This document shows, piece by piece, positions 2,171 through 17,456 of a DNA stretch of 64,000 nt (position 1 is its first letter; every line of letters starts with the position of its first letter). The stretch spans positions 64,689 through 128,688 of the forward strand of contig CAMCZZ010000007.1 in NCBI GenBank assembly GCA_945888375.1, given 5' to 3'. The notes beneath the pieces are model-generated. The model was not told where the DNA came from. It was given only the letters and a program-made list of their open reading frames with translations, and did no database searches. The translations under genes and the position numbers were made by a program. Source of the DNA: Akkermansia muciniphila. Lineage in GTDB: Bacteria; Verrucomicrobiota; Verrucomicrobiia; Opitutales; Opitutaceae.

Positions 2171-2174
2171 CTAT

Positions 2175-2579
2175 TCAGCGCGGGGCGCCTCCGAGGTTGA
2201 AGCGGACAGGGGCAAGGTTTTGACCGGTCTCGGCGGCGAAGATCTCCGCCTTGCGGTTCGCGGCGAGGCGATCAGTCACGGAAATGCCCACGCGGACGAC
2301 GCGTGTCTCGACGGGGGGCACGAGGCCTAGGGCGAGGGTCTGGTTGCGCTCCTCGAGCACTTCGGGTGACTGGCCGGCGGCGACGAGGCCGCCGATCTCG
2401 GCGACCCGGCGCTCGGTCTCGGCGATGCGCTGTTCAAGCACGCGGGCGGTGTTGGCGGAAACGGAGATGTCGCGGCGGAGATCCACGATGGCGAAGCCGA
2501 GGCTGCCGCCTGTGCCCAGGGCGACGAGGGAGCCGAGGACGATCTGGGTGGCAAAGGCACGGGTGGAGCGGATTTTCAT
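2175..2579 (-). CDS. ftsL: FtsL-like cell division protein
   Basis: A 134-residue protein with a short basic N-terminus, one predicted membrane helix (about 12-32) and a following heptad-like stretch rich in Arg, Glu, Leu and Val (about 40-70) that could form a coiled coil. This topology is that of FtsL, the bitopic division protein that bridges FtsB/FtsQ and the FtsW-FtsI synthase. FtsL sequences are poorly conserved, so the call rests mostly on size, topology and position between rsmH (12 bases upstream) and ftsI (4 bases downstream), the standard FtsL slot. The C-terminal third after residue 80 is longer than in E. coli FtsL and has no recognised domain. Confidence 0.75.
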   Translation of the reverse strand: MKIRSTRAFATQIVLGSLVALGTGGSLGFAIVDLRRDISVSANTARVLEQRIAETERRVAEIGGLVAAGQSPEVLEERNQTLALGLVPPVETRVVRVGISVTDRLAANRKAEIFAAETGQNLAPVRFNLGGAPR

Positions 2580-2591
2580 AAAGCAGCGTGA

Positions 2592-3557: not shown

Positions 3558-3623
3558 GGGCGGCGGGCCTCCGGGCGGCGCGAGGGGCGGGCGGGGAGGC
3601 GGGTGGCTTCATGGGCGGGCGGA

Positions 3624-4073
3624 TCAGATGCCCATCCGACGCAGGCGGTCGGCGGGTTTTTGCGCGGCGGTGGCGGACTGCACGCGTTCCCAATGGGCGG
3701 GACTGTAGAGATTGAACTTCGTCATCGAGCCAACGAGGACGACGTCCTTGGCGATGCCGGCGTGGGCGCAGAGCTCGGGCGTGAGCATGACGCGGCCGGA
3801 TTTATCGTAGCTGAATGATAGTGTCTTGCCGAAGAACTCGGCCGCGGCCTCCTGGGCTTCAGCGTCGGCGAGCGACTTTTCTGCGACCCGATCGTAGAGG
3901 GCCTGGGCCTGCAAAGGAGGCAAGACGCTGAGAAAGCCTTCGAGCGGCACCACCAGGAAAGTTTCGTCTTCAGAGTGCGCGGAGCGCCAGGCCGACGGAA
4001 TCGTGAGGCGATTCTTGTCGTCCAAAGTATGCCGGAAAGTGCCGGTATAGAATGGTTTGCCAGGAAGGGACAT
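3624..4073 (-). CDS. mraZ: Transcriptional regulator MraZ
   Basis: MraZ is a small DNA-binding protein built of two AbrB-like swapped-hairpin repeats. It forms a ring and represses its own division-cluster promoter. The first repeat contains DDKNRLTIP near residues 18-26 and the second contains DKSGRVMLTPEL. I start the gene at the ATG at 4073, which gives 149 residues beginning MSLPGKPFYTG, as in the family. The frame is open to 4118, but the longer start would place part of the four-repeat MraZ box inside the coding sequence. A GGAGGA lies 17 bases upstream of the chosen ATG, too far to be an ideal ribosome site. It is the first gene of the minus-strand division operon. Confidence 0.93.
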   Translation of the reverse strand: MSLPGKPFYTGTFRHTLDDKNRLTIPSAWRSAHSEDETFLVVPLEGFLSVLPPLQAQALYDRVAEKSLADAEAQEAAAEFFGKTLSFSYDKSGRVMLTPELCAHAGIAKDVVLVGSMTKFNLYSPAHWERVQSATAAQKPADRLRRMGI

Positions 4074-4092
4074 GGGATGCCGTGGAATTGTC

Positions 4093-4129
4093 CTCCACAA
4101 CGCCCCACTTTCTCCCATTTCGCTCCATT
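4093..4129 (-). promoter_or_regulatory. MraZ box: four direct repeats with 10-bp spacing
   Basis: Read on the minus strand, four pentamers occur at exact 10-base intervals: ATGGA (4124-4128), ATGGG (4114-4118), GTGGG (4104-4108) and GTGGA (4094-4098). MraZ proteins are known to bind TGG-rich direct repeats one helical turn apart upstream of mraZ, so this is very likely the autoregulatory operator of the division cluster. A TTGACG at 4132-4137 could be the -35 element. The -10 position 17 bases downstream (GAGAAA) is weak. Confidence 0.8.
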
Positions 4130-4503
4130 CTCGTCAAGCATTCCTCCAGAAAAACCCTACACTCCAGTGATTGGCGGTAACTGGGCACAGGTGGAGGCAG
4201 GTCGGCAGGCATGCGCGGCGCGTGCTTGGCTGGCGCCAGGGGAGGGCGTTTTTTATCCCCTAAAAACCTAGCCAAGATGCATTAAAAACTTGGGCTGGGA
4301 TGGCCGTTCAGCCTGGCCACGAGAGTGGGTGAGTGCGCGGGCAAACTCCGCCGGCTGGGGGGGCCGGGTGGGGCGTTGTGGGCAACTGCGCGAAACCTTC
4401 GCCCCCGCGGTGGGCCGTGGGTGGGTAGGGCCCGGATATCGGCCCTCCGCGCTGCGCTACTGAGCTGCCGGGCTAACCCCCGGGAAGGGTGAATGATCCA
4501 GGC
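4130..4503. other. Intergenic region between sufT and the MraZ box
   Basis: About 370 bases with no supported gene. It lies downstream of sufT and upstream of the mraZ operator, so it should hold the distal division-cluster promoter and the sufT 3' end. The open frames here are short and have no recognisable content. GC-rich inverted stretches such as CCGGG/CCCGG occur near 4468-4482, but no hairpin with a T-run is visible. Confidence 0.4.
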
Positions 4504-5043
4504 TCAGATCAGGCCCAGCTTCATTTTACCTTCTTCGGAGATCATTGACTGGTTCCAAGTGGGCTCCCAGACGATGCGCACCTCGGCGGAGGCGAGGCCG
4601 GGGACGAGCAGCAGTTTGCCTTTGGCGTCCTCGGCGATGGCTGGGCCCATGCCGCAGCCCGGTGCGGTGAGAGTCATCGCGACATCGGCGTGGTAACCGG
4701 TTGCGGTCGAGGTGACATCGAGGGAATAGACGAGGCCGAGATCGACGATGTTAACGGGGATTTCGGGATCGTAGACTTTGCGCAATTGGTTCCAGAGGGC
4801 CTCGGGATCGGGGGCGCCGTCCGCCAGGGTGGCGGCTTGCACGGATTGGTCGGTGGCTCGTTCGCCAATGGCGTCGGCGTCTTTGGCGTCGATGCGGTAA
4901 AGGCCGGCATCGCCTTGCACGGTGTAGGTGCCGCCGAGCACCTGGTGAATAAAGACTTTCGTGCCGGCGAAGAGGGTGTGTTTATCCCCGCTCGGGATCT
5001 GGGTGACGACGACGTCGCGGGACAGGAGGCGATCTTTATTCAT
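4504..5043 (-). CDS. sufT: Putative iron-sulfur cluster assembly protein SufT (DUF59/MIP18 family)
   Basis: The C-terminal half (about 85-179) is a MIP18/DUF59 domain with the DPEIPVNIVDLGLVY motif and the conserved cysteine in TAPGCGMG. The N-terminal half (about 1-70) matches the SufT-type extension. SufT proteins help maturation of Fe-S proteins in the cytoplasm; the exact step is not settled. The length of 179 residues is usual. The gene stands alone, with no other suf genes nearby, and is divergent from the radical SAM gene at 5825, which itself needs a 4Fe-4S cluster; a functional link is only a guess. The ATG at 5043 is the only good start. Confidence 0.88.
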   Translation of the reverse strand: MNKDRLLSRDVVVTQIPSGDKHTLFAGTKVFIHQVLGGTYTVQGDAGLYRIDAKDADAIGERATDQSVQAATLADGAPDPEALWNQLRKVYDPEIPVNIVDLGLVYSLDVTSTATGYHADVAMTLTAPGCGMGPAIAEDAKGKLLLVPGLASAEVRIVWEPTWNQSMISEEGKMKLGLI

Positions 5044-5824
5044 GAAAGAGGATTTTGCGGGCGGCCACGGGAAGCGGCGGAGCTTTAGGGGAAGAGAGTG
5101 TGATGCAGGGCGCTTGCGCGAGGTAAACGACCTGCCTATTTTTCACCTTTAACGATGTCAGGGGCCCTGTCCAATCCTGTGAACGCGCCGCGGCGAATTT
5201 CTTGGGCGACCCGGCGAGACCCGGGCCTGCAGGTCTGCGGGTTGGTGACGCGCGGTTTTTTAAGCGGCCCCACGTGACGGTTTCCGCTCTTCGCGGTCCG
5301 GGCTCCACCTGCCCCACAACCCAGCATCCCCGTTCCTGAGACGATCGTGATCGGTTAAACCAGAATCCGCGATTGGATTCGCTGAGACGCCGCAAGATCG
5401 GGGAGCAGATGGCGATGAACGAAATTCGCGGCGCGCCCACAGGGGCCAGAGGTGGTTTCGCAAATCGCCCGATGACCGCGAGGTTCCGGCGGATCGCGAC
5501 GAGCAAACGCGGCTTTCGGGTAAACTCGTCCAGACCCAATGGGCTTTTTCTCTAAAACGCCCCTACAAATTCGATGCGGAGTTTTCGCGAAATCTCGAAC
5601 CCAACGGTTGCACGCTCACGAACACCCTTCAGGTCATTTTTCAGCGATTCTCGGCCTGAGCCCTTTGGCTTGGTGGCAATTCGATTGAAGGAGGCAGACT
5701 TCGCCGAGGCGAAATCGGGGCTGACAAAACGTCGATTGCGGAATAAGTTTAAGTCATTAAATATGAAGCGAATGCATGACTGGATTTTCCACTGCGCCAT
5801 GGTTTGTCACTAGCATGGATTTTA
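5044..5824. other. Intergenic region between sufT and the radical SAM gene
   Basis: About 780 bases between divergent genes. The middle holds a family 1 dispersed repeat (5353-5525). Open frames on both strands here are compositional and share sequence only with the other repeat copies. The last 200 bases before the radical SAM gene are AT-richer, for example around 5740-5765, which fits a promoter, but I cannot fix -35 and -10 boxes. Confidence 0.4.
5353..5525 (+). repeat. Dispersed repeat family 1, copy A
   Basis: This stretch aligns over its full length with 50704-50880 and, inverted, with 58731-58878. Shared blocks include GATTGGA near the left end, GAGCAGAT, GAGGTGGTTTCGCAA and TTCCGGCGGATCGCG. 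The ends form a diverged inverted repeat: GGTTAAACCAGAATCCGCG on the left against CGCGGCTTTCGGGTAAAC on the right. It lies between divergent genes and is probably non-coding. Confidence 0.75.
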
Positions 5825-6907
5825 ATGTCGGCCATGAAACCGACTATCCCTGAAAATCCATCGTTCCCCCGGTCCAGTCAGCCTGCGTTCGGGAAAGTTG
5901 ATTCCTTCCCCGCCCGTGCCCGGATGAACGGAAAATCGGTCGTGATGGTGCCGGCTAAAACGATCCTGAATTTCCAAAGCGGGTTCGTTCATAAGATGCT
6001 TTGCGATGGTCCGACCTTCTCTACCGGAAGTGCGTGTGGATACTCCTGTTCCTTCTGTTACGTCCCGGCCATCATGCGGAAAAATCCCCATGGGATCGAC
6101 CCGAGTCTCAAGCATGAAGAGATCGTCGTCCGCCGGGAAAATCCGATCGAGGTCCTTCGTCGTCAGCTTACCCGGGCTAACGGAAAACCCAAGATAACGG
6201 GTCCCGATGAAGTCGGTCGCGTGGTCTTCGCGAGTCCCTTGGTGGATGTGGCGGCCAACATGGATCTCGTTCGCGAGACCATCGAGGCGTGTCGCGTGAT
6301 CTTGGAGCTTACCCCGTGGACGATCCGGCTGCTGAGCAAATCCAACTTGCTCCCGAAAGTAGCCGAGGGTCTGGCCGATCCGGCGATCAAAGACCGAGTG
6401 ATTTACGGAGTGTCCACCGGAACCCTGGACGACCGGCTTGCCCAGGCGTTCGAAGGCGGCACCCCTCTCGTATCGAAGCGTATCCAGTCGATCCATTGGC
6501 TTCAGGATAAGGGCTTCCGGACCTATGGGATGATTTGTCCGAGTCTGCCCTTGGAGACGCGCGAAGACTACTGGGACTTTGCGCGGGAGTGCGCGGAAAA
6601 ACTCCGGGCGGATCGCATGGAGCATGTCTGGGCGGAGGTAATCAATGTCCGCGGGGAAAGTTTTGAGCGGACCGAGGCGGCCTTGCGGGAGGCGGGCTTT
6701 GCGCGGGAAGCGGAGCGGCTCAAGGCGGTGAGTCTCGGGACGCCGGAGTCGAAATTGGCGTGGGAGGACTATGCGCGTTGGACCTTCGAGGGGCATGCCG
6801 AGGTGTATGCGGGCGTTCCTGGCAAACTCCGGTTTCTCCAATACGTGACCAAGCCTACCGAGGCGTGGTGGGCGGCGCGGGAAAACCAGGGCGCGGTCCT
6901 TCTCTGA
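5825..6907 (+). CDS. Radical SAM protein, spore photoproduct lyase-like family
   Basis: The cluster-binding motif CGYSCSFC (CX3CX2C) lies at about residues 71-78 of a 360-residue protein, followed by the TIM-barrel half with LTPWTIRLLSKS and ISTGTLDD-like segments typical of SPL-related radical SAM proteins. The enzyme should use a 4Fe-4S cluster to cleave S-adenosylmethionine; its substrate is unknown. A true spore photoproduct lyase is unlikely because the motif context differs and no sporulation genes are present. Starts at ATG 5825 or 5834 are both possible; the frame is open to a TTG at 5804. It is 40 bases from the next gene, 6948-7367, and likely heads a three-gene unit. Confidence 0.8.
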   Translation: MSAMKPTIPENPSFPRSSQPAFGKVDSFPARARMNGKSVVMVPAKTILNFQSGFVHKMLCDGPTFSTGSACGYSCSFCYVPAIMRKNPHGIDPSLKHEEIVVRRENPIEVLRRQLTRANGKPKITGPDEVGRVVFASPLVDVAANMDLVRETIEACRVILELTPWTIRLLSKSNLLPKVAEGLADPAIKDRVIYGVSTGTLDDRLAQAFEGGTPLVSKRIQSIHWLQDKGFRTYGMICPSLPLETREDYWDFARECAEKLRADRMEHVWAEVINVRGESFERTEAALREAGFAREAERLKAVSLGTPESKLAWEDYARWTFEGHAEVYAGVPGKLRFLQYVTKPTEAWWAARENQGAVLL

Positions 6908-6947
6908 AGAAGCCCACAGTCGGTAAAATCCATCCCGATTTCGAACC

Positions 6948-7367
6948 ATGCCCGAACCTAAATCCAAACCTATCGAGATACCCCTCGGAGACGACGGCGA
7001 GCCCCTGATGGTGGTGAGCCGTCATGTCGCCTTGATGCGCCCGCACCTTTTCAAAGTGTGCAATGAGAATATGAAACCGGGTGGCCGTCCCTCCCTCGAT
7101 CTATTCGCGGAGATGACCGAGTTTCCCGACGGCGAGCTGCTTTTGGTTTACGATGCAGCCACCGGCTCCCGCGTGTGGGTTCAGAGCCTTGGCGGCCGGG
7201 CGGATGGCTTTAGCCGGTTTTTTCTCCGACAAGCTGGCGTGTTGATGGACACCGAGGGCACGCATTTACGCGTGCCCCCCGGGTTTTGGCGGGTGCAGCC
7301 GCAGGCGGCGCAGCTAAGCGGCGGCGCGGTGACGTTTGCCTACTATCCTTTTCGTTATGTGTGGTGA
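6948..7367 (+). CDS. Hypothetical protein, 139 residues
   Basis: I do not recognise this protein. It has no signal peptide or membrane segment, is mixed alpha/beta in appearance, and ends in an aromatic-rich tail. Codon use is like its neighbours, with GC-rich third positions. Its last 11 bases overlap the start of the next gene, which strongly suggests co-translation, and it follows the radical SAM gene by 40 bases. It may be a small partner of that unit. Confidence 0.65.
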   Translation: MPEPKSKPIEIPLGDDGEPLMVVSRHVALMRPHLFKVCNENMKPGGRPSLDLFAEMTEFPDGELLLVYDAATGSRVWVQSLGGRADGFSRFFLRQAGVLMDTEGTHLRVPPGFWRVQPQAAQLSGGAVTFAYYPFRYVW

Positions 7368-8559
7368 AACTTTTGATTGGGATAAAATAACCCGGCGACA
7401 CGCCTTGTGCACGTGGCGCAATCGGGCGCGGTCCACCGAGCCTTTGATCGATTTTTTGGAATCCAAGTTGCGCGGAGTGCGCCTGCACCTCCTGGGCATT
7501 CCGGCCGAGGACGACATCGAGGTGCGAATTTGCGATTCGGCCGAGGAGTTCTCCCGCGCGGTGGAGCAGGCGGGCCGGCGCGTGCTGCCGCATCTGCGCC
7601 GGTGGGCGACGATTTGCCACGCCAGCACCGTATCGGTCGGGGACTTGATGCCGTGGGTGGCCAACGAGAGCGAGGCTTTGGAGACTTTGTTCCGCGTCGA
7701 GCTGGGCGGCGACGAACTGGCCGAGTGCTATCACTGCTACGCTCCCGAGGGATGGGCGGACCCGCAGGGAAAGCGGACGCCGGTCCTGCTTGCTGGCCAT
7801 GTGCCGCGCGCGGTGGAATGGCGCAGCCTCGTGGCGGTGGAGTGGTGCATGACGGAAACGGGTCGCGGCAAAATGCCGGACGTTCATTTCGACCTGGCGT
7901 TTGAGACGCTTCTGGCGCTGCACGCCTGCGCCGCCTTCATGATCCTGGACAACGGCATTGCGCTGGTCTGCCGACGCCCCGTGGAGTTGCACTTCGACCC
8001 TCAGGGCCGGCTGGGGCGCTGCGATGGCCCCGCGGTGTTGTGGGCCAATGGCGAGACCGGGTGGTATCTGGCTGATCAGGCATTCCCCCGCGTGCTGCGG
8101 GATCGCTGCAACCAGCTCTATCACGGAACGGCGAACCCTTGGCCGCAGCCCGACATGGAGTGGGAGGAGAAGGTCACGCGCGATCTTTGCGACGATTACC
8201 TGTATCCAGTTCCTATCTCCGGCGCGGAGCTGACAAAAATCATCCGCGAGGGTCTGGCCGACCAACCCTTGTTCAGCTCGTGGTTCTTTGAGGAGGATTT
8301 GCGGGCAGGGCGCTACATCGTCTGGGACACGGTGGGGCCGTGGACGCAGGGCGGCGGGACCGTGCTGCGGGAAATGCAACTGCGGCGGGTGGAGCGTGGC
8401 CCCGGGGTGAGGCACTATCTCTGCGAACTAGGGGAGGAGCGCCACGCCGAACGCGTCATCGAGGTGCCCGATCGTTTTTTCCGAGTGGATGACGCCCTCG
8501 CTTGGACCTATGATCCGAAAGGTGTTTCCAAGGCAGCGGGCGAAAAAACCGAGCCTTAA
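7357..8559 (+). CDS. Hypothetical protein with a DUF6745-like segment
   Basis: A 400-residue soluble protein. A central stretch (about 205-225) with HFDPQGRLGRCDGPAVLWANG resembles DUF6745-type proteins, where HxxxGP and W-x-G motifs recur; their function is not known. I start at the ATG at 7357, which overlaps the preceding gene by 11 bases; the frame is open to 7336 but that start has no support. It is the third gene in line with the radical SAM gene. The DUF assignment is from memory of the motif and needs a profile search. Confidence 0.65.
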   Translation: MCGETFDWDKITRRHALCTWRNRARSTEPLIDFLESKLRGVRLHLLGIPAEDDIEVRICDSAEEFSRAVEQAGRRVLPHLRRWATICHASTVSVGDLMPWVANESEALETLFRVELGGDELAECYHCYAPEGWADPQGKRTPVLLAGHVPRAVEWRSLVAVEWCMTETGRGKMPDVHFDLAFETLLALHACAAFMILDNGIALVCRRPVELHFDPQGRLGRCDGPAVLWANGETGWYLADQAFPRVLRDRCNQLYHGTANPWPQPDMEWEEKVTRDLCDDYLYPVPISGAELTKIIREGLADQPLFSSWFFEEDLRAGRYIVWDTVGPWTQGGGTVLREMQLRRVERGPGVRHYLCELGEERHAERVIEVPDRFFRVDDALAWTYDPKGVSKAAGEKTEP

Positions 8560-8641
8560 CCTCGGAAACGGCAGCAGGGACCTTAGATTTCACGGGTTAA
8601 CTCGGATAATGTAGTCCCAAACTAACCACAGCTTAAAATCC

Positions 8642-9373
8642 ATGAAGAGCTTTGGGAAAAAATCTCAGGCGAGTCGGGCGGCGTGTGGCGCGGCGTTTTG
8701 CGCGCTCGGCGTGGCTTCGGAGGCTTGGGCGATCCCCGGCTACGGGCCTTTTCTGCCTGCCGATCGGGTGCGGAGCGTCCTGCTCGTCGAGGGTATCCAG
8801 AAGCCGGATGTGGGGGACGATTCCGGCGGCTCGCGATGGAGTGTGCAGGTGGCGGAGCGGCAATGGGCGACGATCGCGGTGCGGGTCGGCGGCGAAGGTC
8901 AGGCGGCGGAACTAACCTTGACCCCCGGCGGTGACGCCATGCCGCAGACGTGGAAGATCACCGAGGCCGATGCGCCGGTGCTGATCACCGGCGTGTATGC
9001 GGCCCAGCTTAACGCAGATGCGGCGCCCGACTTCATTGTGACGCGGAGTTACCTAGGGTGTGGCCTAGCCGCCGATATCACACAAGTGATGTTCGTGCTA
9101 TCGCAGCCTGACGGGAAATACAGCCTGGCCTCCCATGATACCTACGATTGGGGTCTGGAGGACATCGTGGATCAGGGTGGCGACGGCAATGCGCGTTGGG
9201 TGAAAACGCAGCTAGAGCAAACCGAGGACGCCAAAGGTCGTCCGCAGAGCTATTGGGTCCACACCTTGTGGCGGGTGGAGGACGGCGAGGTGGTGCGGGA
9301 GAGGAAGTTAGGGCGGAAACGGTATTGGAGAGAACCTTCGATTGCCGGAGCGTCTAATGGGGTAGGCTACTGA
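8642..9373 (+). CDS. Secreted hypothetical protein
   Basis: A 243-residue protein whose N-terminus has a basic region, a hydrophobic core and a likely signal peptidase I site after AWA (about residue 30). The mature part contains a TGVYAAQLNADAAPDFIV segment, resembling the VCBS/FG-GAP-like pattern in which a calcium-binding Asp-rich loop sits in a beta blade, but there is only one such unit. No enzymatic motif is visible. It is 82 bases after the preceding gene and is probably exported to the periplasm. Confidence 0.6.
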   Translation: MKSFGKKSQASRAACGAAFCALGVASEAWAIPGYGPFLPADRVRSVLLVEGIQKPDVGDDSGGSRWSVQVAERQWATIAVRVGGEGQAAELTLTPGGDAMPQTWKITEADAPVLITGVYAAQLNADAAPDFIVTRSYLGCGLAADITQVMFVLSQPDGKYSLASHDTYDWGLEDIVDQGGDGNARWVKTQLEQTEDAKGRPQSYWVHTLWRVEDGEVVRERKLGRKRYWREPSIAGASNGVGY

Positions 9374-9430
9374 AATTCATGTGAGTCCCAGAAATAGGAC
9401 ATGCGGCCACTAAGAACTATGTCTATTTGA

Positions 9431-10564
9431 TTATAGCGCGTCAATCCACACCTGCGTCTCCGTTACGTTGTCAGGACAAGCCCGCACATCAAAGAATTGC
9501 TTTAGGTATCTGACCGCATTTTCGACCGTTCTCTTGTATATGCGACCTTGGTAATTACTACCATCCTGATGGCATGTTTTGCCGTCATGGCTTGCCTCCC
9601 AGTCTGGATCATGGGTCACATCCACGCCTTGGGCCCGAATCTCGCCAATCAGATATCGTGTCGTTCCGCGGACACCTTCGTTCTTAAAGTCGAGACTACC
9701 GTGGGCGCGACAGATCCATGCGTTATTCCACCTGCTGTCGCACGCTTCCTTAATGGTGACTGCGGTGTCGAGTTTATGATCCTGGGCTAAAAAGATTATC
9801 GGTTTGCTCGAATTGTTTTGAGCTTCGGACGCTTGTTTCCGGTCGGTGCTTGAATCAACCTTGGCCGCTTTCGACTCCGTGCGCGGTTCCCGGCTATTTG
9901 ATGTTGTCGCTCCTCCGCAATTGCACCAGCCTTGAAGCCATGCAAAGCACGCCATATCTACATCGGCAGCGGTCCACTTGCATTCCACAGGTTTTACAGT
10001 CTTTGTTAACTCGCCAAGATGATCGGGAGTTAAAAAATCTCCCAAAGTAACATTATTTGTCGTAAGCTGCATGGCTTTAAACCGACAAAAATCGGCGTAG
10101 CCTAGGTAGCGGCCTCCGATTGGTGTTCTTGCATATATGTCACTATGTGTCACCAAGTAATGGTCAATTACTCCGTCTAACACTGGAGATAACTCTGGGG
10201 CCAGCATCCTCAGGTGCTTGGTTGAGTATGAGAAGCTGCCTAAGCCGCTGATTGGGGCAAGGGAAGTTTTGGCGTGTAGAAGATTAGGGGAAATTCCCCC
10301 AAGATGTTTAATCGCATTCGAAAAGCTACTCACTATATTAATTGCAGGACTTGTGTTGATTCGCCAGAAAACGCGGGCTCCTGTTCGTCCGCCCCAGCGA
10401 CAAACATCTCTAGAGAACGCTAGTAAATTTGTATGACTTATAACGGCACCAGGGGCCATGAGGGTGCGGCCAACCGCCTCAACTGCTCTCGTGCCCGGCA
10501 CTTTATGTAGGTGCTTATAGTGGCAGCACTGGAGCTGGTGATCCGTTAAGTGATGGAGTGGCAT
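9431..10564 (-). CDS. Hypothetical protein with OGG/HhH-GPD-like motif
   Basis: A 377-residue protein with no named family that I recognise. Around residues 105-140 it has GLGSFSYSTKHLRML followed by ELSPVLDGVIDHYL. This is like the helix-hairpin-helix and substrate-pocket segment of OGG-fold proteins (G-L-G, then S-K-x-L, then P-x-x-D). The central region (about 215-255) is low-complexity, rich in Ser, Lys and Glu, and looks like a linker. The C-terminal part has several Cys and His residues. The DNA is AT-richer than the flanks, pointing to acquisition. Upstream is an AT-rich stretch with TAATATAAAT right before the start. It lies 102 bases after the GIY-YIG gene on the same strand. The OGG link is inference. 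Confidence 0.6.
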   Translation of the reverse strand: MPLHHLTDHQLQCCHYKHLHKVPGTRAVEAVGRTLMAPGAVISHTNLLAFSRDVCRWGGRTGARVFWRINTSPAINIVSSFSNAIKHLGGISPNLLHAKTSLAPISGLGSFSYSTKHLRMLAPELSPVLDGVIDHYLVTHSDIYARTPIGGRYLGYADFCRFKAMQLTTNNVTLGDFLTPDHLGELTKTVKPVECKWTAADVDMACFAWLQGWCNCGGATTSNSREPRTESKAAKVDSSTDRKQASEAQNNSSKPIIFLAQDHKLDTAVTIKEACDSRWNNAWICRAHGSLDFKNEGVRGTTRYLIGEIRAQGVDVTHDPDWEASHDGKTCHQDGSNYQGRIYKRTVENAVRYLKQFFDVRACPDNVTETQVWIDAL

Positions 10565-10666
10565 GAAAATTTATATTAAATTAGTAGTGCGTATGTCGTG
10601 GCGCATTGTCGTTATGAACTGCGGCGGGGGCGTGGATACAGCATTTAGGCATAGTGGTTAGGTGGC

Positions 10667-11128
10667 TTAGAGTTTTTGGTTCGCTACGGGCAAATCACCG
10701 AAATCGTGGATACAGCCCTGCAGCAGCAGGGCTTCGAGGGCGGCGGGTGCGATGTTCGTGGGAGTCTGTAGGCAAGTGACCTTGAGGTCCCGCACCTTAA
10801 GTGCACTCGTATACCCGGAAGGTGGAATGCTTGATGAGCTGGGGCCAAAGAGAAACTCCTCGCCATCGAATTTATACGGCGTTTTCGCCCCACGTAGCCG
10901 ATTTCGAATCGTGGATTTACTCACGACCAAACCACGGCTGATTTTGCCGGAACTCCCGATGTAGATCGGCTGACTCTGTCCATATGTCGGTGAAATTACA
11001 TAAACGCCAGGAAGATCCGGCACGCCGTCGAGTAATTCATTTGCATTTTGACCGATATGTTCGGATGCGTGAAACGCTTGAGAAGCCTCCTGAAGATGGT
11101 CCGCGTAGCCGGTGGAGAACGACTTCAT
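10667..11128 (-). CDS. GIY-YIG nuclease-like protein
   Basis: A 153-residue protein with a GIY-YIG pattern: GVYVISPTYGQSQPIYIGSSG (first and second motif strands, about 41-61), a following Arg-rich helix STIRNRLRG carrying the likely catalytic Arg, and a Glu in ALEALLLQ near residue 132. It ends with LPVANQKL, similar to the tail of stand-alone GIY-YIG domains. Such domains cut DNA or RNA; the target here is unknown. No DNA-binding extension is visible. The gene is AT-richer than the genome core and precedes the OGG-like gene at 9431-10564, forming one of two such pairs in the island. Confidence 0.72.
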   Translation of the reverse strand: MKSFSTGYADHLQEASQAFHASEHIGQNANELLDGVPDLPGVYVISPTYGQSQPIYIGSSGKISRGLVVSKSTIRNRLRGAKTPYKFDGEEFLFGPSSSSIPPSGYTSALKVRDLKVTCLQTPTNIAPAALEALLLQGCIHDFGDLPVANQKL

Positions 11129-11280
11129 GGTAATTTTGTATTTTTTGGCGGTTTTCTATGTCAATGGCGAAACCAGCTCAGACGCGCCGTTTTGTTTGGC
11201 CTGCGCCTTCTCGAGTCGGCTTTGGGCTGCGGCGAGACTTGTTGGGGCATCCGCATAGGTGGACGCGAGCGGGTAGTGGT

Positions 11281-11514
11281 TCACTGGGCGCGGAAGCGGC
11301 TCTGGAGCGCACCGTTGGTCAGGTTGTAGACGTGTCCGTAGAGGCCGGTGGTTTCCTGGATCATCCACACGCCGGTCGTCCCGTTGACTTGGGTGCCGAC
11401 GAAGCGGCCGTGGTAGTGGATCACGCGTTTCAGAGTTCCGGTGCGCGCATCATGCACGGCTACTTGGCCCTGGGAGCGCGGGGCGAGGGTGAGGACGGTG
11501 GGTTGAGTGGACAT
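11281..11514 (-). CDS. Small hypothetical protein, 77 residues
   Basis: A short soluble protein with repeated beta-like stretches rich in Gly, Thr and Val and no cysteines. Third codon positions are strongly GC-rich and the frame is closed tightly between neighbours, so it is likely real. It starts 31 bases after the AAA+ gene stop on the same strand. I do not recognise a family. Its position suggests that it belongs to the WYL/AAA+ unit. Confidence 0.6.
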   Translation of the reverse strand: MSTQPTVLTLAPRSQGQVAVHDARTGTLKRVIHYHGRFVGTQVNGTTGVWMIQETTGLYGHVYNLTNGALQSRFRAQ

Positions 11515-11545
11515 AGTTAAAGGGGTTTAAGATTTTTTACGGATG

Positions 11546-13687
11546 CTAGGTTTGGATCAAAGTGCCCGCGGCATGAAAGCCGACGCTCCGGCGCGCGGGG
11601 GTTTTGAGGCGCACCTCCTCGGCGAGGGCCTGAAACCAAGCCTCCGCTGTGGGTAGTGCTTGGAACCGCGACCGCCGCGCCACCGCCGCGAAATCGCCGG
11701 GGGTTAGCCGGTCGGTCTTATCGAGTTCCCGCAGCGTATCCTCGTCGGGAGGCGGAAGTTTTTGCGCGGCGAGATGCTCGGCGAATAGCGCGCGGGCTTG
11801 TTGTGGCCGCAGAAACCCGAACTCGCTTTTCAAATCGAAGCGACGCAGGGCGGCGGGATCGAGATCGGCAACGAGATTGGTCGTCGCCACCACAAGTCCC
11901 TCGAAGTTTTCAAGCTGGGTGAGAAACTCGTTGGTGCGGGTTACCTCCCAAGAGCGGAGGGCACTCTGACGGTTGGTCAGGAAACTATCGACCTCATCGA
12001 ACACCAACACGGCGGACTCCTGGATCGCCTCCTCGAACGCGGCCGCGATCTTGTGTTCCGTCATACCCACAAAGGGATCGAGCAGGTCCGAGCCGCGCTT
12101 GAGGATAAGGGGGCGATTTAGCCGTTCAGCCAGATGGCGGGCGAAAGCTGATTTGCCCGTGCCGGGTGATCCGTAGAGGAGTAGCCGGCCCGCGCCGCCG
12201 TTGCGGATCAAGCCCTCCGCCAGATCTTCGAGGTTTTGGTCGGCATTGACGTAGGCGGGACGATAATAGCCGGGCAGGCCGGCGTTGGTCGCTTTGAGCG
12301 GGCGGCGGCCCTGGGCCTTGAGCGTGCCGTCGACCGCGATTTCGATGTAGGGATCAAGCGGCGCCTCGGGCGGCAGGATGGCGCGCATGGCTTCTGCCGT
12401 CTGGGCGGCGCGGCAAATGATGGCCGGCGTGGTCGCGGGACTTTCCAGCAGGCGCCCCGCCAGCTCGGGGCTGATGGCCGGGGCCACCCGCTGAACTAAC
12501 GCAAGCCGGGCGGCGCGTGGCGGGTTGGGGACCTCGACGACCAAGTCAAAACGGCGCACGTAAGCTGGGTCGAGGGCATCGGGGCGGTTCGTGATGAAGA
12601 TCGTGCTGACGCTCGTTGCATCGAGAATCGAGTTAAACCAGCCCTTGCGCGAGGCGCCAACGCCCCGCGGGCCCAGTAGCGACGGCGGCGGGGTGACATC
12701 CTCAAGTTCATCGAACACAAGTAGGGTTCGCCGTCCCTTGAAAATTTCCCGCGCGGCAAGGAGGGCGCGTAAACGTTTTTCACCGTCAATTGACTCGCCG
12801 TCCTCATCCTCGACGGTGATCTCGTGGCATTCAAGGGCGATTTCACGGGCTAAAAGGCGCGCCAGCATGGTTTTGCCCACCCCGGGTTGCCCTGAGAGAA
12901 GGATGTTAGCGGCCGGACCTACTCCCGAGGAGCGGCTGCGCAGAAGCTCGCGCAAGAGCTCACCCTGGCGTCCGAGGTGGGCAAAGTCCTTCCACTCGAG
13001 ATCGGCGGCCGGTGCGGGGCGAAACAGATCGCGAAACAGGCCGACGATATCGGCCTGCGAGTAGAGCAGGTCCGCCGGCAAGCTGGACGACACAAAATCG
13101 AACTTATCCCGAAGGCAGTGCGGGTTATCATCGACACTGATCAAGCCTGCGGAACGGAGCTTACCTTTGCGCGAAAACAGAATCGTGGCCTGTTCCGCCG
13201 GGATGCCAAGCATGACGCCTATGGCGTTAAAAGCGGCCTCGCTGGAGAGCTGTTCCAGCACAAGAGATAGGCGCCCCAGAAGCGGGTCGCGGTCTAGTTG
13301 GACCAGCACGCACAAGGCTGTGCGTTCAACTTCGTTCAGGCCTAGGATGGTCGCGAGGCGGCGGGTGTTTTCGTCGAGCATCGGCGGTAGCCCGTCGAGG
13401 ACGCCGGAGGTCGTCTCGAGTTCGGCGAGGTCCTTGCGCCAACGGGCGAGCCACCGATCGCGCGCCTTCCGGTTTTCCGGGAACTTGCCCTTAAGGCCCA
13501 ACGCGATGGCGAAACCGGAGTCGGAGCCGAGTTCCGACCAGATACGGGAGCGGCAACGCTCGTGATTAAGAATGAGCCGGAGTATCCAGCGCTGCGCTTC
13601 AGGGGACTGTTCGCGCAGGGGACGGATAGGATCAAGCGCGGCTGCGGATTTGGAAAAACGAAGATGTTGGCGGGAGCGTTTAAGCAT
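11546..13687 (-). CDS. Tandem AAA+ ATPase
   Basis: A 713-residue cytoplasmic protein with an N-terminal helical region (about 1-230) and two AAA+ modules. Module 1: Walker A GQPGVGKT (266-273), Walker B LLVFDE (322-327), arginine pair in VRRFD (377-381). Module 2: Walker A GSPGTGKS (506-513), Walker B VLVFDE (560-565), LRRFD (614-618). All key residues for ATP binding and hydrolysis are intact in both, so it is probably an active remodelling ATPase. No protease, nuclease or zinc domain is fused. It follows the WYL regulator by 158 bases on the same strand. Such ATPases next to WYL regulators are common in accessory and defence loci, but this pair has no assigned role. Confidence 0.85.
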   Translation of the reverse strand: MLKRSRQHLRFSKSAAALDPIRPLREQSPEAQRWILRLILNHERCRSRIWSELGSDSGFAIALGLKGKFPENRKARDRWLARWRKDLAELETTSGVLDGLPPMLDENTRRLATILGLNEVERTALCVLVQLDRDPLLGRLSLVLEQLSSEAAFNAIGVMLGIPAEQATILFSRKGKLRSAGLISVDDNPHCLRDKFDFVSSSLPADLLYSQADIVGLFRDLFRPAPAADLEWKDFAHLGRQGELLRELLRSRSSGVGPAANILLSGQPGVGKTMLARLLAREIALECHEITVEDEDGESIDGEKRLRALLAAREIFKGRRTLLVFDELEDVTPPPSLLGPRGVGASRKGWFNSILDATSVSTIFITNRPDALDPAYVRRFDLVVEVPNPPRAARLALVQRVAPAISPELAGRLLESPATTPAIICRAAQTAEAMRAILPPEAPLDPYIEIAVDGTLKAQGRRPLKATNAGLPGYYRPAYVNADQNLEDLAEGLIRNGGAGRLLLYGSPGTGKSAFARHLAERLNRPLILKRGSDLLDPFVGMTEHKIAAAFEEAIQESAVLVFDEVDSFLTNRQSALRSWEVTRTNEFLTQLENFEGLVVATTNLVADLDPAALRRFDLKSEFGFLRPQQARALFAEHLAAQKLPPPDEDTLRELDKTDRLTPGDFAAVARRSRFQALPTAEAWFQALAEEVRLKTPARRSVGFHAAGTLIQT

Positions 13688-13845
13688 GCCCCTATTATAC
13701 CCGAAGACTGTGACAGTTCAGGGCCCAGTAGCTTGCCGCCGCCGCTTCGGCCCGCGGGAAACGACGGTTGCATCCACCGCTTGAAACGCCGTTGCCGGGC
13801 TGGGGCGGAAAGTGGCCCGAGCCCGTTTTCCGAGAACGAGACCGT

Positions 13846-15201
13846 TCAAGGAGTCGGCCTGCGATACAGGTCAAGCATCAGGGCGGCCTCTTCGGCGATC
13901 TCTTTGCGCAACGCGGCCGGTTCCTTGACTTCGCAGTCGCAGCCGAAGGCGAGTATCCAGCGCTTTATGTCCCCTGTGTGGCTGACCTTGAAGGTGACCT
14001 CTATTTCCCCCGTAGCCGAGCGCTCCACCTGCTGGGTCGGATGCCATTTCCGCTCCAAAACGTGATGGGCGCCGCGATCGGTGATGCGCAGTTTCACCAC
14101 AACCGGGTTCCCGTTCAGCGGACCGCTGTGCACCCCGAAGGCCGATTGCACGTAATGCGCGGGGCGGAAGTCTTCTGGGTAAGCGAAGTCCGTTTTGGTG
14201 GGGATAACTTTTGAAAACCGGGCGACGATGTAGGTGCGGATTGGATTCTCACCAGATTTCCGCGCCCGATCACGCGCCACGAGAACCCAACGGTCCGCCA
14301 CGCAGGCGAGGTGCAGGGGTTCGAGCATCAGCCTCTTCGCCGCAACCGGTTTCGAGCGCGAGGTATAATGTGTTTCCAATACACGATGTTCAAGAAGGGC
14401 CTGCGTGATCGCATTGAAAACGCCCTGATTGGCAATGCCCGCGCCGGGGGTGTGAAACGAGACCAGGGTGGAGATGGGAACGCCAAGTCCCAACGATTTT
14501 TCTTTCATGGGTCCGCCGCAGATTTTTTCGAGTCCTTCTCGAATATGATCGGCGAAATGCGCGCCGTCGAAAACCGCCAGCGCCTGGCGGGCCACTTCCA
14601 GGGCAACCTTGTGGTGGTGGTTCAGCCCCGGGCCGATCTTCAGGTAATTTTCGGCCTTGGGGTTGATGATGCGGTATCCGCGATTGGCGTAGTCGTATTT
14701 GACCGAGACCCTGTAAGGCTCATTCGCCAGTCGCGCTTTGATACGATGGATCGTGCGATTATGATTACCGACCAATTCCATGAGGTGCCTCATCGGCACG
14801 ACGCCGCCCCGCAGGGAGGCCTCGCGGAGTTTTTCGTAAACCACCACCATGCGGTCGAGGTGGTTGCCGTAATCGAATTTTTTGCCAAAGCCATCCGGCA
14901 CGGCCTTCCCCTTCGGCTTACGCTTTAGCGGGCGTTTACCCTTTGGTTTGCCGGTCTTTTTTGCGGGCTCGCCAGAAGAGGCCTTGGATTTCGAGCGCGA
15001 GGCCTTGGATTTCGAGCGCTGGGCGTAATCGAATTTTTTGCCAAAGCCATCCGGCACGGCCTTCCCTTTTGGCTTAGGCTTATGCGGGAGCTTACCCTTT
15101 GGTTTACCGGATTTTTTCGCGGGCTCGCCAGAAGCGGATTTGGATTTCGAGCGGGAGGCCTTGGATTTCGAGCGCTGGGGTTTTTTTCTGTTGTCCGTCA
15201 T
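13846..15201 (-). CDS. WYL-domain transcriptional regulator with lysine-rich N-terminal repeats
   Basis: A 451-residue protein. Residues 9-60 and 61-112 are two near-identical 52-residue lysine/serine-rich repeats. A DeoR/HTH-type DNA-binding region spans about 114-178, the WYL ligand-sensing domain about 255-336 (core RWVLVA rather than WYL) and a WCX-like C-terminal domain about 360-445. WYL regulators often control defence islands and respond to nucleic-acid ligands. The extended basic N-terminus is unusual and may bind nucleic acid non-specifically. It heads the minus-strand arm of the island and is divergent from the OGG-fold operon at 15674, so it may control both from 15202-15673. Confidence 0.88.
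   Translation of the reverse strand: MTDNRKKPQRSKSKASRSKSKSASGEPAKKSGKPKGKLPHKPKPKGKAVPDGFGKKFDYAQRSKSKASRSKSKASSGEPAKKTGKPKGKRPLKRKPKGKAVPDGFGKKFDYGNHLDRMVVVYEKLREASLRGGVVPMRHLMELVGNHNRTIHRIKARLANEPYRVSVKYDYANRGYRIINPKAENYLKIGPGLNHHHKVALEVARQALAVFDGAHFADHIREGLEKICGGPMKEKSLGLGVPISTLVSFHTPGAGIANQGVFNAITQALLEHRVLETHYTSRSKPVAAKRLMLEPLHLACVADRWVLVARDRARKSGENPIRTYIVARFSKVIPTKTDFAYPEDFRPAHYVQSAFGVHSGPLNGNPVVVKLRITDRGAHHVLERKWHPTQQVERSATGEIEVTFKVSHTGDIKRWILAFGCDCEVKEPAALRKEIAEEAALMLDLYRRPTP
14866..15177 (-). repeat. 156-bp in-frame tandem duplication inside the WYL gene
   Basis: Two adjacent copies, 15022-15177 and 14866-15021, encode 52-residue units that both end in GKAVPDGFGKKFDY. Most of the DNA is identical between copies, including long runs of the same bases at the 3' end of each unit. 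This points to a fairly recent duplication. The unit itself contains shorter SKSKASR-type repeats. The length is a multiple of three, so the reading frame is kept. Confidence 0.9.
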
Positions 15202-15673
15202 GTTTTTAACAATTGTCCAATGTTCATTTATCTCAAACCGAGAGTCCTAGCTTCTCAACCTTAACAAAATATCGAAGGTCGTATGGCGGTGGTCCCGCGT
15301 TGATTTACGATTCATCGGCTCAAGAGATGCGGCATAATGCCGCGACAGATGTGTTAGGATCGCGAATACTTTTTTCCTGATTCTCCATGGGTTGTGAAGC
15401 TAGTGGAACGAGATCTGTCACACTGAGGTGTAAAGATACGTTCATGTTAAACGAATCCTCCGCTTTCCAGTTCCCGCCAAGCCCGTGCCTAGGAGCCAAC
15501 AAACCCCGGCTTTGGACCGTAATGCGGAAATTCCAGCGAACTCCATTTGCACCAAAACGCGTGGCTGAAGCAACGGCCAATTCTTCTCTTCTAAATAGTC
15601 AGGAACTTTAACTCCACTCCGCCTTCGGCCCAAGCCTAGTTCGCCTGCGCTTAAACCTCAACCCGCTACATTC
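15202..15673. other. Divergent intergenic region of the accessory island
   Basis: About 470 bases between the WYL gene (minus) and the OGG-fold operon (plus). It must hold the promoters of both arms. AT content is higher than in the genes, especially 15202-15270 and 15360-15460. I found no supported small gene; open frames on both strands lack a recognisable product. Confidence 0.4.
15209..15225. promoter_or_regulatory. Imperfect inverted repeat next to the WYL start, candidate operator
   Basis: The sequence AACATTG-GA-CAATTGTT (minus-strand reading) is an inverted repeat with one inserted base, 8 bases upstream of the WYL start codon. Its position suits autoregulation by the WYL protein. 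There is no direct support beyond symmetry and position. Confidence 0.3.
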
Positions 15674-16321
15674 ATGCCCTTTCTTGCCGATCCTCTCTAC
15701 CTAAACATGATCAGCCACATACCGGTGGCGCAGCATTCCGTGTCAGTGCGCGCCGAGTTCTGGGAAACGCCATGCGCCGACGCCGGATGCGCCGAACTCC
15801 ACCAGACGCTTTTCGCCGGAGCAGGTGAAATCCGCATCACCCGCGAATGGCTGCACCATGCAGTCGTTTCCGACGAACTGCGCGCCCTGGCGATCATCCT
15901 ATGGGGCTACCCGAAAGGCGCGCGCGGCAACCGACACCTGCATTGGCTGGCTCATCTGCCGGCCATCGCGCGGGCAGCCGCTGGTTCGTTGAATAACTGG
16001 AATGCTTACCTTGCGGGATTCGCCAAAATCGGAGGTCTTGGCATATCAACCATCTCTAAGTTCGCTTGTTTTTTCGGCCGGCGCTTTGCCACGCCTGATG
16101 CGTCCGCTCCGTTGCCCGGTTTGATTTTGGATCGCCGCATCCTGGCTGTTTTGGCCGACGACCGTTGGGCGGAACTGCATCCCCTGTCCGCGCTGACCTA
16201 CCTCAATGCTCCCGCGCGCTACCTCGATTATCTACGCCTCCTGAATGATTTAGCCACCCATTCGGGCATCCAGCCGGAACAACTCGAATTCTTCCTCTTC
16301 GCCCACGGCGATAACTTCTGA
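15674..16321 (+). CDS. OGG-fold (8-oxoguanine DNA glycosylase-like) protein
   Basis: A 215-residue protein. The central part has GGLGISTISKFACFF followed by LPGLILDRRI, which matches the helix-hairpin-helix and Asp-containing helix of OGG-fold proteins found in bacterial accessory loci. The C-terminal part (YLDYLRLLNDLATHSGI then QLEFFLFAHG) fits the closing helices of the same family. The Lys in ISK and the Asp in ILDRR are in positions where glycosylases keep catalytic residues, but activity is unproven. The gene opens a plus-strand operon; the next start is 14 bases downstream. Confidence 0.65.
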   Translation: MPFLADPLYLNMISHIPVAQHSVSVRAEFWETPCADAGCAELHQTLFAGAGEIRITREWLHHAVVSDELRALAIILWGYPKGARGNRHLHWLAHLPAIARAAAGSLNNWNAYLAGFAKIGGLGISTISKFACFFGRRFATPDASAPLPGLILDRRILAVLADDRWAELHPLSALTYLNAPARYLDYLRLLNDLATHSGIQPEQLEFFLFAHGDNF

Positions 16322-16335
16322 ACCTCACCCATCCT

Positions 16336-16854
16336 ATGCCTGCGCTTGCCATTGTCACCCAACATTACCCTCGAGCTATCGTGCCGCACGCCCTCGCGGA
16401 CATACCGCGCTATCAGGAAATGGTTTACGGCCTGATCCTAAACGACGTCGCGATTGTTTGCGGTCGCGGAAAATTTAATCGCGCCAAGGTCATCTTCGAT
16501 GGTGCGCAGCAGACCACCGTGCACATTAAGGCGATGACGGTGCGCTTGCACCGGCGCTATGGCCCTCCGCAACAGGTGGTGGAGCGTTTTCTGATTCCCT
16601 GCGTCACCAAGGCCGATGCCCTGGCGGTTGAGCGCGATCTCCATCGGCGCATCGGCGGCGATGGTCCAAATATCCCGGCGGAGATCCAGGCGGCGTTGCT
16701 GGAAGGACTGGATCACGCCTCGCCCGCCTGTTTACTTTTGCGCGCCGCCCTCATCTCGGCTTACGATGGACTTTCCGATATACGCCGTTGGCGCGAGGCG
16801 GGCATCGCGGATGACGCTACTTGGGTGGAAATCGATCAACGCCTGGCATTATGA
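16336..16854 (+). CDS. Divergent GIY-YIG-like protein
   Basis: A 172-residue protein. It contains VYGLILNDVAIVCGRG (about 30-45), which I read as degenerate GIY and YIG strands, then KFNRAKV with a possible catalytic Arg, and a Glu in ADALAVERDLHRR near residue 99. The order and spacing suit a GIY-YIG domain, but the motif is weak. The C-terminal 60 residues are helical and unrecognised. It lies 14 bases after the OGG-fold gene and its stop overlaps the phosphatase start as ATGA, so the three genes are translated together. An alternative reading is an unrelated protein of unknown fold. Confidence 0.5.
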   Translation: MPALAIVTQHYPRAIVPHALADIPRYQEMVYGLILNDVAIVCGRGKFNRAKVIFDGAQQTTVHIKAMTVRLHRRYGPPQQVVERFLIPCVTKADALAVERDLHRRIGGDGPNIPAEIQAALLEGLDHASPACLLLRAALISAYDGLSDIRRWREAGIADDATWVEIDQRLAL

Positions 16855-17456
16855 AACAAAAAATCCATTCTTGCGGACAATTTGAGGTCATGAGGGCTGA
16901 CACACTGGGTGTTCATATGCGGGTATCGGGATTCCCGGCCTCTTTGATTGCTGGTCCTTTTCCCAACCGGCATCAGCCCGACTTTTTTACCCTAAATAAA
17001 GCGGGCATACGCCATATCGTGTGCCTTGCCTCGACCACGCCGGTCCTTCGCTACGATCCCTATCCGGCCGGGCTATCTTGGTTGGCCATGGAGGATATGC
17101 CTGAGCTGGCTGATTTTGTGGAGCCTACGAATCTGGCCAATTTTCGGCTACTGGCGGCTACTGGCCAATCTGGAGATGCTGCCTTCAATAATCGAAAAGC
17201 AGCGAGGGTTTCGATGAATCGCATAGCTCAAAAGGTGGTGGCCACGCTTTGGCGAAATGAAGGCGTGTTCGTCCACTGCGAGTATGGGGTGGAACGAACG
17301 GGTCTCCTCATCGCGCTGGTGCTGTATCTGGCTTCTGATGAGCCGGAGGAGGCCGCTGCTGCGGTCGCACGCTGTTTGTCGCCTCATGCTGGTGACGGTG
17401 GTGATCTGGAGAAGCGTCTTTGGAATGTGCTCTCTGCCTCAATCAACGAACGGTAG
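16851..17456 (+). CDS. Protein tyrosine/dual-specificity phosphatase-like protein
   Basis: A 201-residue protein with the Cys-based phosphatase loop HCEYGVERTG (CX5R; Cys143 and Arg149 by my count), followed by a helix. This is the signature of dual-specificity and tyrosine phosphatases, which act on phosphoproteins, phosphoinositides or RNA 5' ends. I start at ATG 16851, which overlaps the preceding stop as ATGA; the frame is open to 16821 but that would lie inside the previous gene. A conserved general acid loop is not certain; MEDMPE near residue 80 is a candidate. Its tight coupling to OGG-fold and GIY-YIG-like genes is unusual and argues for a nucleic-acid or signalling role. Confidence 0.75.
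   Translation: MKQKIHSCGQFEVMRADTLGVHMRVSGFPASLIAGPFPNRHQPDFFTLNKAGIRHIVCLASTTPVLRYDPYPAGLSWLAMEDMPELADFVEPTNLANFRLLAATGQSGDAAFNNRKAARVSMNRIAQKVVATLWRNEGVFVHCEYGVERTGLLIALVLYLASDEPEEAAAAVARCLSPHAGDGGDLEKRLWNVLSASINER

What the first reader, a model, noticed from the sequence alone, without database searches (positions are those of the whole stretch)
9431..17456. Two OGG-like/GIY-YIG-like gene pairs flank a WYL-regulated tandem AAA+ ATPase
In the sequence, the minus arm has a GIY-YIG protein (10667-11128) followed by a protein with an OGG-like HhH motif (9431-10564). The divergent plus arm has an OGG-fold-like protein (15674-16321) followed by a GIY-YIG-like protein (16336-16854). Between them are a WYL regulator, a tandem AAA+ ATPase and a 77-residue protein. 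WYL regulators are known from defence islands. The mirrored pairing suggests that the OGG-like protein recognises modified or damaged nucleic acid and the GIY-YIG domain cuts it. This could be a composite defence or repair island that has not been described. Family calls for the weaker members are from motif reading only.
Basis: partly seen in the sequence, partly recalled or inferred. Interest (0 to 1): 0.85.

Follow-up and report, generated by a model that had tools for sequence, protein, structure and literature searches.

The report
Mosaic island of DNA-damage-type genes
A patch of foreign-looking genes, including a likely DNA-base-removing enzyme and two possible DNA-cutting proteins, sits in one bacterium where most of its relatives have ordinary genes; it looks like several small modules gathered in one place, not one new machine.

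Summary
15674-16321 is a PF21790 OGG-family protein (E 3e-18). 10667-11128 is a GIY-YIG protein with the canonical motif residues. 16336-16854 is GIY-YIG-like by profile comparison but lacks the second tyrosine. WYL and tandem AAA+ are confirmed. The OGG call for 9431-10564 rests on a motif; no statistical test supports it.

The two arms are not detectably homologous and differ in GC3. In sampled relatives the parts occur apart: AAA+ with WYL alone; the 16336 homologue with a WYL gene and a restriction-enzyme-like gene; the 10667 homologue without an OGG-type gene; the halves of 9431 as separate proteins. Neither pair was found in a second genome, all sampled within one phylum.

The region is a real island: 11 of 12 congeners with a truA match have ruvX before truA; this genome and its closest sampled relative have different cargo there, the relative's of defence type.

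It could target modified DNA; that is unproven.

The parts
15674..16321 (+). OGG-family (PF21790) DNA-glycosylase-like protein, 215 aa; GGLG from residue 120, candidate catalytic pair K129 / D153
   Evidence: Pfam E 3e-18; residue positions; the K/D roles are inferred by analogy with the OGG1 K249-D268 pair mentioned in PMC13160076 (passage)
16336..16854 (+). GIY-YIG-like protein, 172 aa; keeps Y31, R49 and E99, lacks the Tyr of YIG (I-V-C-G)
   Evidence: profile-profile match together with its homologue, P 1.8e-4, 0 of 100 shuffles; alignment A1; positions
16851..17456 (+). DSP/PTP-type phosphatase, 201 aa, HCEYGVERTG; start codon overlaps the stop of 16336-16854 by 4 bases
   Evidence: Pfam PTP-SAK 1.6e-5 (25.4 bits, cut-off 27) and Y_phosphatase3 8.7e-5 (23 bits, cut-off 22.2); start codon
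13846..15201 (-). WYL+WCX transcriptional regulator, 451 aa, with a 156-nt tandem duplication near its 5' end (14868-15179)
   Evidence: Pfam; repeat
11546..13687 (-). tandem AAA+ ATPase, 713 aa, distantly IetA-like
   Evidence: Pfam, PADLOC IetA 2.1e-35; conserved next to a WYL gene in G102
11281..11514 (-). 77-aa ORF of unknown nature; GC3 0.82, unlike its neighbours
   Evidence: no significant family (best E 0.025); composition
10667..11128 (-). GIY-YIG nuclease candidate, 153 aa, motif residues Y43, Y56, R75/R77, E132, N150
9431..10564 (-). two-domain protein: N-half (about 16-208) with an OGG-like GLG...K116...D130 motif; C-half (267-377) of unknown function
   Evidence: N-half homologue standalone in L024 (31% over 194 aa), C-half homologue standalone in L023 (44% over 110 aa); OGG call not statistically supported
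5804..9373 (+). left part of the lower-GC stretch: radical SAM gene, DUF6745-like gene and two others; membership of the same insertion not shown

Best explanation
The region is a mosaic genomic island in front of truA, probably assembled from at least three small modules with separate histories: (1) WYL regulator + tandem AAA+ ATPase; (2) GIY-YIG nuclease + two-domain 9431 protein; (3) a three-gene operon of OGG-family glycosylase, GIY-YIG-like protein and DSP phosphatase. They are of defence or DNA-repair type and probably act separately, not as one machine. Most likely mechanism of module 3 (inferred): the OGG protein flips out and excises an unusual or damaged base and nicks through its Lys/Asp pair; the GIY-YIG-like protein, which lacks one catalytic tyrosine, binds or helps process the site; the phosphatase trims ends or signals. 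Module 2 (inferred): the canonical GIY-YIG protein cuts DNA with 9431 as its targeting partner. Module 1 (inferred): WYL senses a nucleic-acid or nucleotide signal and controls an ATP-driven remodeller. Shown: families, operon layout, separability of the modules, changed junction at truA. Inferred: every biochemical step, the separate acquisitions and the defence role.
For: AAA+ and WYL stand together at another locus of congener G102 without the rest (51% and 44% identity). The 16336 homologue in another genus overlaps a WYL gene and neighbours genes matching a methyl-directed-REase model, DpdC and DUF2779, with no match of the window's OGG protein in the 12 kb (best E 0.52). The 10667 homologue has no 9431 or OGG homologue in its 14 kb (best 9431 match 27 residues at E 0.036), and the two halves of 9431 stand alone elsewhere. 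GC3 falls into groups: 9431/10667 0.50/0.57, OGG/16336 0.67/0.66, AAA+/WYL 0.73/0.70, phosphatase 0.55, truA 0.83. ruvX (with manC) precedes truA in 11 of 12 congeners with a truA match; it is nowhere in this window nor in G102's contig end, where a PLD-SNF2 helicase and a DUF1016/YhcG nuclease lie instead.
Against: Sampling is thin: at most one good homologue for each OGG/GIY-YIG-type part, all inside the window's own phylum. PF21790 was found in no other sampled genome (1 of 273 and 1 of 387, both times the window itself), so a pair conserved in another phylum would have been missed. Only one AAA+ relative (G102) could be read for its neighbours; the other lies at a contig edge. G102's contig ends 5.3 kb beyond truA. 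The minus-strand genes follow one another with gaps of 31-158 bases (from coordinates), so co-transcription is possible. GC3 of single short genes is noisy. The GIY-YIG profile was seeded with hand-picked loci.
Confidence: 0.62

Rival explanations
1. One composite defence system: the WYL regulator controls both arms, the AAA+ loads DNA, and two glycosylase/nuclease pairs recognise and cut modified phage DNA.
For: Divergent layout around a WYL gene. Defence precedents exist for the family types: Brig1 glycosylase (PMC11078745, passages), Brig3-BapA operon (PMC13160076, passages), CMoRE GIY-YIG enzyme (PMC12923530, abstract and passages), WYL regulators near defence systems (PMC9122601, title and start of abstract in a search listing).
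Against: The parts occur separately in the relatives read; arms not detectably homologous; GC3 differs. In the divergent region 15202-15673 no repeat of 14 nt or more and no promoter-like site was found; neither absence is strong evidence.
Confidence: 0.1
2. Module 3 is a repair operon for endogenous damage, not an anti-phage system: the OGG protein removes 8-oxoguanine or a similar lesion, and the GIY-YIG-like protein and phosphatase clean up the ends.
For: PF21790 is named for 8-oxoguanine glycosylase likeness. The genome has only two HhH-GPD (PF00730) matches, so an extra glycosylase could fill a gap; most sampled relatives have two to four, so this is not unusual.
Against: It sits at a junction that differs from 11 of 12 congeners and PF21790 is absent from the sampled relatives, which fits cargo better than housekeeping repair; the GIY-YIG-like homologue lies among restriction-type genes.
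Confidence: 0.2
3. Remnant of a prophage or other mobile element whose genes are chance neighbours with no joint function.
Against: No phage structural or integrase gene recognised among the twelve ORFs of 5804-17456 scanned with Pfam or the five scanned with PHROGs; the named ORFs are unbroken.
Confidence: 0.08

Closest known systems
Brig1 / Brig3 antiviral DNA glycosylases (PMC11078745, PMC13160076; passages only)
   Same: a glycosylase in a variable gene neighbourhood; Brig3 in a two-gene operon with an accessory enzyme
   Different: Brig1's best structural matches were uracil DNA glycosylases (passage), whereas 15674-16321 is in the OGG family; the word GIY-YIG does not occur in the Brig3 paper (the Brig1 paper was not searched for it); no activity is known here
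CMoRE (PD-T4-3) GIY-YIG type IV restriction enzyme (PMC12923530; abstract and passages)
   Same: GIY-YIG domain in a defence setting, modified DNA as possible target
   Different: CMoRE is one protein with a GIYxY-YIG motif and its own sensing domain; 10667-11128 has no such extra Tyr; 16336-16854 lacks the YIG Tyr, and in CMoRE all active-site mutations tested, the second Tyr included, abolished cleavage in vitro (passage)
OGG / HhH-GPD glycosylases (PF21790, PF00730)
   Same: PF21790 profile match; GLG followed by Lys and Asp
   Different: no detectable match to a profile of the relatives' Nth-type proteins (19 of 100 shuffles as good); unusual neighbours
IetA-type AAA+ ATPases (IetAS)
   Same: AAA domain similarity (PADLOC E 2.1e-35)
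   Different: NCBIfam IteA score 106.6 against a cut-off of 510; two AAA domains; no protease family among the ten ORFs scanned

Membership tests
PF21790 OGG family (15674-16321) | score over Pfam cut-off along the full profile | tested here: met
   66.7 bits against 27, profile 3-201 of 201
PF21790 OGG family (15674-16321) | excision of 8-oxoguanine or another base | not testable with these tools
   needs biochemistry; only the K129/D153 positions were read
OGG family (9431-10564) | profile or sequence similarity to OGG/HhH-GPD proteins | tested here: inconclusive
   no Pfam OGG or HhH-GPD hit for it or for its L024 homologue; 345 of 1000 shuffles as good against 15674-16321; hhalign P 0.15; the Nth-profile test has no power because the true OGG protein fails it too
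GIY-YIG superfamily (10667-11128) | GIY ... YIG ... R ... E (... N) with profile similarity (motif order partly recalled) | tested here: met
   P 1.6e-4, 0 of 100 shuffles; single sequence above 1000 of 1000 shuffles; residues. The profile alignment covers only 28 columns around GIY and YIG
GIY-YIG superfamily (16336-16854) | profile similarity to GIY-YIG | tested here: met
   A1 against the profile: P 1.8e-4, 0 of 100 shuffles, 67 columns; alone, 13 of 1000 shuffles as good
GIY-YIG superfamily (16336-16854) | both catalytic tyrosines | tested here: not met
   the YIG Tyr is replaced (IVCG here, IAVG in the homologue); filed as GIY-YIG-like, not as an active nuclease
CMoRE | GIYxY-YIG third tyrosine | tested here: not met
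   GVYVI in 10667-11128; VYGLI in 16336-16854
Brig-type antiviral glycosylase | uracil-DNA-glycosylase-like protein | tested here: not met
   at sequence level only: PF21790 is the sole Pfam match of 15674-16321 at E <= 1; fold not modelled
Brig-type antiviral glycosylase | protects against phages with modified bases | not testable with these tools
   needs phage challenge
WYL-domain regulator | WYL (and WCX) domains over cut-off | tested here: met
IetA | score over NCBIfam equivalog cut-off | tested here: not met
   106.6 bits against 510
Genomic island | occupied site versus intact junction in relatives | tested here: met
   ruvX before truA in 11 of 12 congeners with a truA match; absent from this window and from G102's contig end. 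Exact ends of the insertion not determined; a rearrangement could have contributed

The most novel reading that the evidence does not exclude
15674-17456 is an undescribed three-gene anti-phage operon in which an OGG-fold glycosylase strips a modified base from invading DNA, a catalytically altered GIY-YIG protein acts at the resulting site, and a DSP-type phosphatase processes the ends. It would be a glycosylase-based immunity built on the OGG fold instead of the uracil-glycosylase-like fold of Brig1.
Probability: 0.17. Interest if true: 0.75.

Novelty: new member of a known kind. Interest (0 to 1): 0.38.

Why it matters
Glycosylases have only recently been shown to act as phage immunity (Brig1 2024, Brig3 2026). 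An OGG-family glycosylase in one operon with a GIY-YIG-like protein and a phosphatase, at a site that holds defence-type cargo in the closest sampled relative, is a concrete candidate for a second structural route to the same strategy, testable in a laboratory E. coli with T-even phages. The larger composite-island idea need not be pursued as a single system.

Tried and rejected
Tests that led nowhere. Two AlphaFold jobs on single sequences gave mean pLDDT 35.5 and 30.6, so no fold search was run. tblastn found no match in plasmids (window 9431, 10667, 15674, 16336; L024, L017 and L031 homologues) or in phages (15674, L024, L017). The two genome-contig scans (16336, 15674) and six viral-contig scans gave no usable locus; one search reported one matching stretch but handed out none. 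A first GIY-YIG profile held mis-extracted minus-strand loci; it was rebuilt from 15 hand-picked seeds to 29 of 30 loci and replaced. One search failed on a wrong motif and was replaced (27 of 30 loci used). phmmer against solved structures gave nothing better than E 0.31 or nothing at all. The promoter/terminator scan found 7 promoter-like sites (shuffles 3.3) and 9 terminator-like sites (shuffles 10.7), none of the promoter-like ones in 15202-15673.

Rejected: that the two arms are duplicates of each other; that the AAA+ is an IetA; that 9431-10564 is a proven OGG protein. Weak hits set aside: G739 for 10667 and G022 for 9431 (stops inside the match); four partial hits to 16336 at E 0.005-0.007 (G491, G727, G224, G545), of which only the G491 contig was fetched (a 64-residue match) and not pursued.
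Full report
What is there. Pfam places 15674-16321 in PF21790, the OGG-like family, at E 3e-18; 11546-13687 as a protein with two AAA stretches; and 13846-15201 as WYL plus WCX. Its ATG at 16851 overlaps the stop of 16336-16854 by four bases, and 14 bases separate OGG from 16336, so the three look like one operon. Gene names such as truA, ruvX, manC, comF, accD, folC, rsmH, ftsI and SufT are my reading of the sequences and come from no call.

GIY-YIG calls. No library names 10667-11128 or 16336-16854 outright. For each I found one clear homologue: L017:2025-2561 for 10667 (40%, E 3.2e-12) and L031:2488-3081 for 16336 (41%, E 2e-36). A GIY-YIG profile was built from 29 of the 30 loci handed out by a PF01541 search. 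Both two-row alignments match it by hhalign with P about 2e-4, and 0 of 100 column-shuffled copies score as high; a third alignment (9431 with L024), used as a negative control, is reached by 17 of 100 shuffles. For 10667 the match covers only the 28 columns around GIY and YIG. As single sequences against the HMM, 10667 beats all 1000 of its shuffles, its homologue all but 1, the 16336 homologue all 1000, and 16336 itself all but 13. The two GIY-YIG alignments do not match each other meaningfully. In 10667 the residues Y43, Y56, R75, R77, E132 and N150 are kept in the homologue. In 16336 the first Tyr, an Arg and the Glu are kept (Y31, R49, E99), but the Tyr of YIG is missing in both sequences. 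In CMoRE, the active-site mutations tested, second Tyr included, abolished cleavage in vitro (PMC12923530, passage), so 16336 should not be assumed to cut.

The 9431 protein. It has two parts with separate histories: the N-half has a stand-alone relative in L024 (31% over 194 aa), and the C-half has one in L023 (44% over 110 aa). The N-half has GLG at 107, K116 and D130, kept in L024, as one might expect of an HhH glycosylase. The similarity to the window's true OGG protein is not significant (345 of 1000 shuffles as good; hhalign P 0.15), and the L024 relative has no Pfam match at E <= 1. A profile of 27 Nth-type sequences does not help: 9431 fails it (71 of 100 shuffles as good for its N-half alone, 17 of 100 with L024), but so does the true OGG protein (19 of 100), so the test has no power. 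The call stays a motif reading.

Do the pairs hold together? Among the genomes sampled, no. PF21790 was found in 1 of 273 genomes of the order and 1 of 387 of the phylum, each time the window's own. 10667 has matches in 3 of 266 genomes of the class including its own; the good one has no 9431 or OGG homologue in 14 kb. 9431 has matches in 4 of 266 including its own, two of them solid but to different halves; no window GIY-YIG protein matches near either, and the GIY-YIG profile finds nothing better than E 0.15 there. 16336 has matches in 6 of 266 including its own, one of them strong. There its gene overlaps a WYL gene (34.5% identical to the window's WYL over 281 aa), and the neighbours match a methyl-directed restriction enzyme model (E 2.3e-6), DpdC (2.9e-12) and DUF2779 (1.1e-21). 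A profile of 16336 found only these two genomes among 120 of the family. The AAA+ has close relatives (E <= 1e-60) in 3 of 188 genomes including its own. In congener G102 it stands next to a WYL gene (51% and 44% identity) with no GIY-YIG profile match and no other window protein matched in the 19 kb read; the third (G055) lies at a contig edge and is uninformative. So AAA+ with WYL looks like a module of its own, and a 16336-type gene near a WYL gene is seen twice (here and in G228). WYL genes are not rare: this genome has three.

Composition. GC3 is 0.50 and 0.57 for 9431 and 10667, 0.67 and 0.66 for OGG and 16336, 0.73 and 0.70 for AAA+ and WYL, 0.55 for the phosphatase, 0.82 for the 77-aa ORF, 0.69-0.77 for the four genes at 5804-9373, and 0.76-0.88 for the seven flanking genes tested (SufT included).

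The site. Of 14 congeners searched, 12 have a truA match at E <= 1e-40. In 11 of these 12, ruvX and manC precede truA: eight shown, and three more (G841, G843, G839), the last two on a second contig fragment of truA. Neither gene is anywhere in the window, nor in the contig end that holds truA in G102, the exception. G102 is also the closest relative at this place (truA 92%, comF 98%, accD 99% identical). It has a PLD-SNF2 helicase and a DUF1016/YhcG nuclease there, both matching PADLOC models, and none of the window's cargo in the 5.3 kb available. The site was therefore probably opened in the lineage of these two genomes and holds different cargo in each. The left end of the insertion is not fixed: lower GC begins near 4-6 kb, so the genes at 5804-9373 may or may not belong to it.

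Mechanism. The best-supported reading is a mosaic of small modules of defence or repair type. For the OGG operon, excision of an unusual base followed by processing is the most likely chemistry. The OGG1 Lys-Asp pair is mentioned in PMC13160076 (passage), and the window's protein has Lys and Asp in matching order, but no activity is shown. Brig1 and Brig3 show that a glycosylase can be immunity (PMC11078745 and PMC13160076, passages); Brig1's structural matches were uracil DNA glycosylases, so an OGG-family version would be a different kind of enzyme. Paper searches: 4 papers hold both GIY-YIG and 'defence island' and none of them 'OGG-like' (listing only); one review holds glycosylase, anti-phage and base modification (not read); none holds 8-oxoguanine DNA glycosylase with GIY-YIG and operon; none holds HhH-GPD with anti-phage. 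The library holds open-licence papers only.

Limits. Sampling was one genome per species, at most 387 genomes per search and 1922 genome searches in all with overlap, all in the window's phylum. Structure prediction was uninformative.

Noticed in passing
window 14868-15179: A 156-nt tandem duplication (two copies, 90% identical) near the 5' end of the WYL gene encodes a repeated Lys/Ser-rich stretch.
   Followed up: no
L009:1001-5740 (G102, before truA): The closest sampled congener carries a PLD-SNF2 helicase (1001-4390) and a DUF1016/YhcG nuclease (4619-5740) at the same junction: a possible defence hotspot at truA.
   Followed up: partly
L031:257-4074: Locus of the 16336 homologue: GIY-YIG-like gene overlapping a WYL gene, then a DUF6998 / methyl-directed-REase-like gene, with a DpdC-like DUF6884 gene on the other strand; a possible compact restriction module.
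   Followed up: partly
L017:5010-5498: A second, unplanned ORF match to the GIY-YIG profile (E 1.7e-4) in the same locus as the 10667 homologue; it may be a chance frame.
   Followed up: no
window 5804-6907: Radical SAM gene (Pfam 6.6e-7) at the left side of the low-GC stretch, starting from TTG if the listed frame is right.
   Followed up: no
   Followed up: no
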